A stretch of DNA of 64,000 nucleotides, from contig KK106983.1 in assembly GCA_000611775.1 (NCBI GenBank), positions 809,542 to 873,541 of the forward strand, written 5' to 3'. The first letter of the stretch is position 1; each line of letters begins with the position of its first letter. This stretch comes from Umbilicaria muhlenbergii (taxonomy: Eukaryota > Ascomycota > Lecanoromycetes > Umbilicariales > Umbilicariaceae). Positions 52,172 through 53,341 of this stretch are shown piece by piece. The position numbers and the translations under genes are program-made. A model generated the notes under the pieces. The model made no database searches. It was not told the DNA's origin and saw only the letters and a program-made list of their open reading frames with translations.

Positions 52172-53341
52172 TCACTGAACCTCACACTTGTCCTGGAATT
52201 TCTTCTTCTTCTTGTCCTTGCCGCTTTCTTTCTCCGTCATCCGCTGCGGGTACGATTCCGCAGCCGCACCCTTCGCCATCGCACCGCCCGAAGTACCATT
52301 ACTGGCCGCTCCAGCTCCAGCCCCAGCCCCGGCATCATTCCTCACCGTCTTCTGTTCCGCACCCTGCGCTCCTCCCGCCGCCGCAGCCCCGCTCTCAGGA
52401 CCATCTAGTCATGTGGAGAAGTTGACCTTGGAGACAGCCTGGTAAAAGGCCTTACCCTGAATCTGAGCGAGCTCGAGTTCCTTGTTGGTGGGTTGGCGAG
52501 ATCCGTCACCGCCCTATCGGTCCCAAACAACCAAACGTCAGTATTCAGTCATACATTCTCACCCGGTCGACATCGGCCGCATGTGGGAGAGACCACCAAC
52601 CGCAAAAGTGCCCGCTCCCCACGGACTCCCGCCCCTGACCTCGCTCAAATCGCCCAAGATCGGAAACGCAGTCTTATACCCCAACGGCACATAAATCATG
52701 CCATGATGCGCCATCGTGCTCATGGCCGCAATCACGGTGCTTTCCTGCCCGCCGCCCATGGTGCCGGTGCTGACGAAGACGCCGGCGTATTTGCCCCAGT
52801 AGGCGCCGCTGGCCCATTGCGCGCCCGTGTGGTCCCAGAAGGCTTTCCATTGCGCGGGGAAGTTGCCGTAGCGGGTGGGGATGCCGAAGAGGAAGGCGTC
52901 GTATTTTTCAAGGGTTTTGGGGTCGATATTGGGGATCGAGGAGTCTTTGGGGGCGGCGTGCATTTTGGCCAGGACTTCTTCGGGGAGGGTCTCGGGGACT
53001 CTGAGAGGGAGAGAGGGGTGGAGGGTTAGCGGGTGGGTGGGGGCTTGGTTTGTTGGGTGTGTGGTTGATGGTGCGCGGAGGGGAAGAGGTGCTCACTGGA
53101 AGAGGTCGGCGGTGCCGCCTGCAGCTTCGATGCCGGCTTTTTCGGCTTCGGCCAGCTTGTGGATGTGGCCGTACATGGAGTACTGGGAGTTTGGTATAAG
53201 CGTTAGTATTGAAGATGAAAAGACGGGGAACAGTCTTGCGCCGCGATTGAGGGGCCAACTAGACGAGGAGTCGTGTTCCTGGATAGCGGGGTGCCTTGGA
53301 GGGGCAACACTCACGAAGATGATTGCAATCTTGGGCGCCAT
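52172..53341 (-). CDS. WrbA/Ycp4-type NAD(P)H:quinone oxidoreductase with cryptic CaaX extension
   Basis: Flavodoxin-fold quinone reductase (FMN) of the WrbA family (yeast Pst2, Rfs1, Ycp4). Four minus-strand exons: 53341-53315, 53182-53097, 53000-52601, 52513-52409. The short product has 205 residues: [29 protein letters not shown] (FMN loop), [46 protein letters not shown] and a C-terminus [15 protein letters not shown]. The stop TGA (52411-52409) is directly followed by CTA and the frame stays open for 78 more codons, Ala/Gly-rich, then KDKKKKK and terminal CEVQ, stop 52174-52172. A 51-nt in-frame GTAAGG...CTAG segment (52455-52405) could also be spliced out. Related fungal proteins are found at eisosomes. 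Ends given cover the long form. Confidence 0.9.
52406..52411 (-). promoter_or_regulatory. candidate stop-codon readthrough site (TGA CTA)
   Basis: On the coding strand the first stop of the flavodoxin gene is TGA followed by CTA. UGA CUA is the established leaky stop context in fungi and animals. Downstream, 78 sense codons are in frame and end in a polybasic CaaX sequence. Confidence 0.6.

What the first reader, a model, noticed from the sequence alone, without database searches (positions are those of the whole stretch)
52172..52460. Cryptic membrane-anchored isoform of a WrbA-type flavodoxin through TGA-CTA readthrough or an optional stop-removing intron
The enzyme ends at a plausible family C-terminus ([15 protein letters not shown]) with TGA CTA, the best-known leaky stop context. 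The same frame then runs 78 codons without a stop. Its end is not random: KDKKKKK followed by CEVQ is the K-Ras-like polybasic plus CaaX arrangement. Independently, GTAAGG at 52455 and CTAG at 52405 bound exactly 51 nt, a multiple of three and normal intron size here; removing it deletes the stop and joins Gln to DGPESG in frame. Fungi are known to use readthrough and alternative splicing to expose cryptic peroxisomal signals on glycolytic enzymes. Here the hidden signal would be a lipid anchor, giving soluble and membrane quinone reductase from one gene. Related yeast proteins (Pst2, Rfs1, Ycp4) are reported at eisosomes. I know no described readthrough-dependent CaaX protein.
Basis: partly seen in the sequence, partly recalled or inferred. 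Interest (0 to 1): 0.92.

Follow-up and report, generated by a model that had tools for sequence, protein, structure and literature searches.

The report
Leaky stop adds hidden membrane anchor
A common fungal quinone-reducing enzyme seems to be made in two forms from one gene: a soluble one, and a rarer one made when ribosomes run through a leaky stop signal and add a tail ending in a lipid-anchor motif, a tail also found in many distantly related moulds and lichen fungi.

Summary
A WrbA/Pst2-type quinone reductase gene on the minus strand (53341-52172, three introns) ends at TGA CTAG (52411-52405); the frame then runs 78 codons to [19 protein letters not shown]. The open frame alone is weak evidence (243 of 4000 shuffles stay open). 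The comparative evidence is strong: 28 relatives, the named ones from five classes of Pezizomycotina, carry the same kind of tail, a variable linker ending in a CaaX box; 27 of 28 have PCGLP before it. Long and short gene models are mixed on the tree, so they are one gene, not two paralogues. Two unnamed ORFs read straight across the stop: both have Trp-Leu at the stop position and Trp again after the CaaX, and no other Trp lies in the scanned part of the 28 tails, as expected if TGA was read as Trp. The rival 51-nt intron lacks a branch site that 3 of 3 real introns of this gene have, but many database models bridge the stop, so splicing is not excluded. I judge the anchored isoform very probably real and readthrough the likelier route. 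No RNA, ribosome, peptide or orthologue DNA data were available.

The parts
52172..53341 (-). whole gene, ATG to second stop: WrbA/Pst2-type NAD(P)H:quinone oxidoreductase (205 aa to the first stop, 284 codons to the second)
   Evidence: gene model from sequence and homology; close orthologue P0002 passes TIGR01755 and NF002999 cut-offs
53183..53314 (-). intron 1 (132 nt, GTGAGT...CCAG, branch CTAAC)
53001..53096 (-). intron 2 (96 nt, GTGAGC...TCAG, branch CTAAC)
52514..52600 (-). intron 3 (87 nt, GTTGGT...ATAG, branch CTGAC)
   Evidence: boundary set by homology [13 protein letters not shown]
52409..52411 (-). first stop codon TGA, end of the soluble form
   Evidence: of 156 homologues with at most 16 residues after the conserved QG/HG, 136 have 12 or 13; here 14
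52405..52408 (-). CTAG directly after the stop: TGA CTA G context
   Evidence: UGA CUA tested in Ustilago maydis in PMC4207609
52405..52455 (-). candidate 51-nt stop-removing intron (GTAAGG...CTAG), judged unlikely
   Evidence: best branch-like site at 8-45 nt from the end is CTGTC, without the branch A; ATGAC lies only 4 nt from the end
52175..52408 (-). 78-codon in-frame extension: variable Gly/Ala-rich linker plus anchor signal
52199..52219 (-). polybasic KDKKKKK
   Evidence: a similar run in Lasallia P0002
52175..52186 (-). CaaX box CEVQ
   Evidence: C-x-x-x in all 28 aligned long forms, in 26 at the very end and in 2 before a Trp
52172..52174 (-). second stop codon TGA, end of the anchored form

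Best explanation
One gene makes two enzymes. Most ribosomes stop at TGA and give the soluble quinone reductase. A minority read TGA CTA G as a sense codon and add 78 residues: a low-complexity linker and a CaaX box next to a polybasic run. The tail is inferred to be prenylated and to hold a fraction of the enzyme on a membrane, where it could keep membrane quinones such as ubiquinone reduced. The arrangement is inferred to be ancient in Pezizomycotina. Shown by sequence: the gene, the stop, its context, the frame, and a tail with CaaX shared by relatives. Inferred: that the tail is translated, that this happens by readthrough, that it is prenylated, and where it goes.
For: (1) 28 aligned relatives carry the tail and end in C-x-x-x (26 at the terminus, 2 followed by Trp); 27 of 28 have PCGLP. 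(2) The stop position is conserved: of 156 homologues with at most 16 residues after QG/HG, 136 have 12 or 13. (3) Long and short models are interleaved on the core tree: 14 label changes against a shuffled mean of 15.6, 142 of 500 shuffles as low; Rutstroemia (long) and Clarireedia (short) are sisters. The search of the window genome found one locus (best candidates only). (4) P0133 and P0129 read VNFA-W-L-D and VNFA-W-L-A across the stop and W after the CaaX; from 13 residues after QG onward there is no other Trp in the 28 sequences, as expected if their ORF caller read TGA as Trp. Leu and then a residue with a G-initial codon in 2 of 2 fits TGA CTN G. (5) CUA after UGA suffices for readthrough in Ustilago maydis (PMC4207609, section 6 read). 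(6) The 51-nt intron has no full branch site, against 3 of 3 real introns of this gene. (7) C. albicans Ycp4 carries a tail of about 90 residues ending in a CAAX box (PMC4556627, passage), and yeast Ycp4 is listed as a substrate of the palmitoyltransferase Erf2 beside Ras1 and Ras2 (PMC5364179, passage).
Against: No transcript, ribosome-profiling or peptide evidence. No orthologous DNA was found, so the codons after the stop in P0129 and P0133 are inferred from amino acids, and these two ORFs are visible only because they are in frame. The other 26 of 28 long forms are database gene models that bridge or lack the stop; by eye 13 of 26 leave the short form right after its conserved Lys, before KVNF, which a real splice donor could explain (the script's cruder offsets put 8 of 26 there and spread the rest over 11 other values). 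The missing branch site rests on three introns, and a full site appears in 18% of shuffles of the candidate, so it is moderate evidence only. No unusual RNA structure follows the stop: z-scores 0.49, 0.28, -0.01 and 1.51. One search listed 120 of 5514 matches and one search used a query that carries the motif, so the counts are not frequencies in fungi.
Confidence: 0.72

Rival explanations
1. Alternative splicing: a short optional intron (51 nt here) removes the stop. Retention gives the soluble enzyme, removal the anchored one.
For: GTAAGG donor and CTAG acceptor bound 51 nt, in frame. 26 database gene models carry the tail without the stop, 13 of 26 by eye with the same point of departure after the conserved Lys. 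The QGK and KVN codons can make GT donors. Fungi are reported to use both routes for peroxisomal isoforms (PMC4207609 and PMC4359377, passages).
Against: No full branch site at 8-45 nt, against 3 of 3 in the real introns; none of the 15 in-frame stop-removing combinations of 39-150 nt has one. The other 13 models leave the short form at several other places. Comparing P0121 with P0129, whose shared parts look almost identical by eye, the implied intron is 13 codons, 39 nt. It predicts Leu after the stop only if the acceptor always lies there.
Confidence: 0.2
2. Two separate genes or paralogues, one short and one long, as with PST and YCP4 in Candida.
For: Candida albicans has separate PST1-3 and YCP4 genes (PMC4556627, passages).
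Against: One locus found in the window genome; long and short labels are mixed on the tree and close relatives differ; both forms are encoded in the same stretch here.
Confidence: 0.02
3. A relic or accident: the stop is recent or a sequencing error, or the open frame is chance 3' UTR.
For: Openness alone is reached by 243 of 4000 shuffles.
Against: The stop position (136 of 156) and the tail with CaaX (28 aligned relatives) are both conserved; two other sequences show a probable TGA at the same place.
Confidence: 0.03
4. The tail is translated but the cysteine is not prenylated; it serves only as a tether or for another interaction. (This overlaps with the other explanations.)
For: Prenylation was not testable here, and the linker is not conserved.
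Against: C-x-x-x stays at the end in 26 of 28 and before the probable stop in 2 of 28, with last residue L 18, Q 5, S 3, M 2, residues accepted by farnesyl- or geranylgeranyltransferase I (recalled).
Confidence: 0.08

Closest known systems
UGA CUA readthrough isoforms of fungal and animal metabolic enzymes (Tpi1, Rpe1, Art1, LDHB, MDH1), PMC4207609 and PMC4359377
   Same: leaky UGA CU(A) directly after a cytosolic enzyme; the extension carries a terminal targeting signal; found in several species
   Different: signal there is PTS1 for peroxisomes; here a CaaX box. The Ustilago screen in PMC4207609 section 6 looked for PTS1; the mammalian screen in PMC4359377 (passages) also looked for prenylation sites but followed PTS1
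Ycp4 of Candida albicans (PMC4556627, passages) and S. cerevisiae (PMC5364179, passage)
   Same: flavodoxin-like quinone reductase family; C. albicans Ycp4 has a long tail ending in a CAAX box and GFP-Ycp4 is at the plasma membrane; yeast Ycp4 is listed as an Erf2 substrate
   Different: Ycp4 is a separate gene from the PST genes and its tail is part of the ordinary protein; here one gene gives both forms
Drosophila Syx17 readthrough extension with a predicted farnesyltransferase signal (PMC3840789, passages with Table 2)
   Same: a prenylation signal placed behind a readthrough stop
   Different: a prediction, in a fly syntaxin, unrelated to this enzyme
Minor allergen Alt a 7 / Cla h 7 and Pst2 (PDB 5mp4)
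   Same: the same enzyme family; 5mp4 is the best solved match of orthologue P0002
   Different: in the listed records the name minor allergen Alt a 7 goes to both short and long gene models; the listing notes no stop between the forms
Ras proteins (recalled)
   Same: CaaX plus a second signal: upstream cysteine as in H/N-Ras, or polybasic run as in K-Ras4B
   Different: no sequence kinship claimed or tested

Membership tests
WrbA / NAD(P)H:quinone oxidoreductase type IV (TIGR01755) | profile match above curated cut-off | tested here: met
   orthologue P0002 204 bits (cut-off 132.5), P0133 196.9 bits; the window protein itself was not scanned, but is 88% identical to P0002 over 189 columns
Functional translational readthrough gene | leaky stop context (UGA CUA) | tested here: met
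   TGA CTAG at 52411-52405; motif per PMC4207609
Functional translational readthrough gene | in-frame extension conserved as protein | tested here: met
   28 aligned long forms; in frame with the stop shown only for the window and, by inference, P0129 and P0133
Functional translational readthrough gene | stop codon and its context conserved in orthologue DNA | tested here: inconclusive
   only inferred from W-L in P0129 and P0133; no orthologue DNA found
Functional translational readthrough gene | extended product shown in cells | not testable with these tools
   no RNA, ribosome or peptide data
Alternatively spliced isoform | donor and acceptor bounding an in-frame stop-removing stretch | tested here: met
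   GTAAGG 52455 to CTAG 52405, 51 nt
Alternatively spliced isoform | branch site CTRAY at a normal distance | tested here: not met
   absent here, present in 3 of 3 real introns of the gene
Alternatively spliced isoform | spliced transcripts across the stop | not testable with these tools
   no transcript data
CaaX prenyl protein | Cys-a-a-X at the extreme C-terminus | tested here: met
   CEVQ here; 26 of 28 relatives at the terminus, 2 of 28 before a Trp
CaaX prenyl protein | prenyl group and membrane binding | not testable with these tools
   needs experiment
Ycp4 orthologue group | clusters with yeast Ycp4-like proteins | tested here: inconclusive
   the two unnamed CaaX proteins that I took as Ycp4-like (P0161, P0226) fall outside all others on a midpoint-rooted tree, with a long branch for P0226; named Ycp4 sequences were not in the tree

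The most novel reading that the evidence does not exclude
A readthrough switch conserved across Pezizomycotina makes a prenylated, membrane-bound isoform of the Pst2/Alt a 7 quinone reductase from the same gene as the soluble one, while yeasts reached the same pair through separate PST and YCP4 genes. It would be the first conserved readthrough-dependent lipid anchor known to me, and within it the second membrane signal differs between lineages: a cysteine in PCGLP in most relatives seen, a polybasic run in the lichen lineage of this window.
Probability: 0.65. Interest if true: 0.86.

Novelty: new variant of a known kind. Interest (0 to 1): 0.8.

Why it matters
It would extend functional readthrough in fungi from peroxisomal signals to lipid anchors, explain why databases hold this enzyme in two lengths, and give a natural comparison of ways to make the same pair of forms: readthrough, splicing, or separate genes. 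It would also offer a way to tune how much quinone reductase sits on membranes through termination efficiency.

Tried and rejected
Paralogue explanation: disfavoured by tree and single locus. Stimulatory RNA structure after the stop: four overlapping stretches folded, none clearly better than shuffles. Orthologue DNA in viral and prokaryote collections: none; three viral contigs matched a KVNF-TGACTAG pattern and were not read. A second scan of genome contigs was allowed and not used. A third protein search with a made-up query around VNFAWLDG and several tail variants returned 4 matches among 50 candidates, all already known, so no further stop-crossing ORF was found. Other in-frame stop-removing introns of 39-150 nt: 15 combinations, none with a full branch site. 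Paper searches: Ycp4 + CaaX gave 3; alternative splicing + CaaX + fungi + flavodoxin 0; stop codon readthrough + CaaX 6, none on this topic by title; Ycp4 + readthrough 0. The library lacks most subscription papers.

Full report
What is there. The window lies in a 34.8-Mb, 7-contig genome; on the tree of core sequences its nearest rows are the lichen fungi Lasallia pustulata (P0002) and Hypocenomyce scalaris (P0019). The gene is on the minus strand, 53341 to 52172, with introns of 132, 96 and 87 nt. The protein is a WrbA/Pst2-type quinone reductase: its close orthologue P0002 passes the NCBIfam cut-offs for type IV NAD(P)H:quinone oxidoreductase, and the best solved match of P0002 is 5mp4, Protoplast secreted protein 2. 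The enzyme stops at TGA 52411-52409 after 205 residues, followed by CTAG. The frame runs on for 78 codons to CEVQ and a second TGA.

Is it more than chance? Not by openness: 243 of 4000 dinucleotide shuffles of the tail are open, 7 of 4000 open with Cys at -4, and 582 of 4000 shuffles of the downstream DNA are open over the same length. It is by conservation. One search listed the best 120 of 5514 matches (8000 candidates scored) and one search listed 111 of 123 candidates, together 228 proteins. Of these, 218 carried the anchor used for cutting tails and 10 did not; 34 of the 218 were at most 320 aa with at least 50 residues after the anchor, 183 had fewer than 50, and one was longer than 320 aa. 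Of the 34, 30 have a CaaX at the end or just before a Trp; the four without are P0057, P0092, P0177 and P0227. Two of the 30 (P0161, P0226) are unnamed proteins that I took as yeast Ycp4-like; the other 28 were aligned. Named sources among the 28 are Lasallia and Icmadophila (Lecanoromycetes), Rutstroemia, Lachnellula, Halenospora, Sclerotinia and others (Leotiomycetes), Colletotrichum, Diplogelasinospora, Apodospora and Xylariaceae (Sordariomycetes), Phyllosticta and Aureobasidium (Dothideomycetes) and Penicillium (Eurotiomycetes); class names are recalled. P0129 and P0133 are unnamed; P0133 groups with Leotiomycetes. C-x-x-x is at the very end in 26 and before a Trp in 2; 27 of 28 have PCGLP before it; the last residue of the box is L in 18, Q in 5, S in 3, M in 2. 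The linker between is highly variable. One search used a query holding the motif, so these numbers show breadth, not frequency.

One gene, two forms. Of 156 homologues with at most 16 residues after the conserved QG or HG (a limit set by me; longer tails and proteins over 300 aa were dropped, and Basidiomycota and unnamed rows are included), 136 have 12 or 13, so the stop position is conserved as well. On a tree of 56 core sequences, chosen by me from the 228 plus the window, the 23 long and 23 short models are mixed: 14 label changes, shuffled mean 15.6, 142 of 500 shuffles as low. Rutstroemia (long) and Clarireedia (short) are sisters with very short branches; Penicillium and Aureobasidium also hold both labels. 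The label thus seems to follow the annotator. The search of the window genome found one locus (it scores best candidates only).

Readthrough or splicing. P0133 (jgi, 1349-base contig) and P0129 (lgn, 1753-base contig) are ORFs that cross the stop. They read VNFA-W-L-D and VNFA-W-L-A, and W follows the CaaX in both; from 13 residues after QG onward no other Trp occurs in the 28 sequences. The plain reading is TGA translated as Trp by an ORF caller under another code. If so, the codon after the stop is Leu and the next begins with G in 2 of 2, as in TGA CTA G of the window. That is inference from amino acids. These two ORFs can be seen only because they are in frame, so their frame is not independent evidence; their Leu is. 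P0121 (Halenospora varia) looks almost the same as P0129 in the shared part (by eye) but lacks 13 residues spanning the stop; the implied intron would be 39 nt. The 51-nt candidate in the window has a good donor and acceptor, but no CTRAY branch site 8 to 45 nt from its end, while introns 1 to 3 have CTAAC, CTAAC and CTGAC 20 to 25 nt from their ends; a full site turns up in 18% of shuffles of the candidate, so this is moderate evidence resting on three introns. Against readthrough, 26 long models in databases avoid the stop, and by eye 13 of 26 leave the short form directly after its conserved Lys; the script's cruder offsets put 8 of 26 there and the rest at 11 other values. A real donor there cannot be excluded in some lineages. 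RNA structure after the stop is unremarkable.

How it likely works. PMC4207609 (passages and section 6 read) reports that CUA after UGA is enough for readthrough in Ustilago maydis, and notes that G often follows. A small fraction of the enzyme should therefore carry the tail. The CaaX is expected to be prenylated: X = L suggests geranylgeranyl, Q, S or M farnesyl (recalled). The second signal is a cysteine in PCGLP in 27 of 28 relatives and a lysine run in this window and Lasallia. In Candida albicans Ycp4 has a tail of about 90 residues ending in a CAAX box, and the flavodoxin-like proteins are seen at the plasma membrane and proposed to reduce ubiquinone (PMC4556627, passages); there the PST proteins, for which the passages describe no such tail, were also at the membrane, so a CaaX is not the only way to get there. 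Yeast Ycp4 is listed as an Erf2 substrate (PMC5364179, passage). A review passage names YCP4 of Magnaporthe oryzae as an AP1 target involved in growth and stress responses (PMC10055536); whether it is this orthologue was not tested. The likely role is a membrane-bound fraction of quinone reductase.

What is known. Readthrough-dependent PTS1 isoforms are established; a readthrough extension with a predicted farnesylation signal is listed for Drosophila Syx17 (PMC3840789, passages; a potential prenylation signal in flies is also mentioned in PMC4973966, passages); the mammalian screen also looked for prenylation sites (PMC4359377, passages). I saw no paper on readthrough or splicing of this enzyme in the listings; the library is incomplete. 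Hence a new variant of a known kind, with a good chance of being biologically real.

Noticed in passing
window 52600-52514 (minus strand): Intron 3 uses an unusual donor GTTGGT; a GTGAGA donor lies 38 nt further in (52562) and would shift the frame. Possibly a second layer of alternative splicing.
   Followed up: no
P0092 (Lachnellula hyalina): Gene model tail without CaaX and unlike the tails of two other Lachnellula species (GPCGLPxKC-box); possibly an annotation frame error.
   Followed up: no
rows of 388-467 aa, such as P0003-P0018: Symbiodinium and other protist or unnamed records hold proteins about twice the usual length with the same family domains; at least P0018 shows two copies of the enzyme in tandem.
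   Followed up: no
P0161 and P0226 (lgn): Unnamed, probably yeast Ycp4-like proteins end SCSKCIIM and SCSKCTIL with no Trp or break before the tail, resembling the C...KC-box pattern of moulds.
   Followed up: partly
P0070 (Lachnellula suecica): Long model keeps the whole short-form end INFA and goes on with TAGG; its stop context may differ from the rest and would be informative.
   Followed up: no
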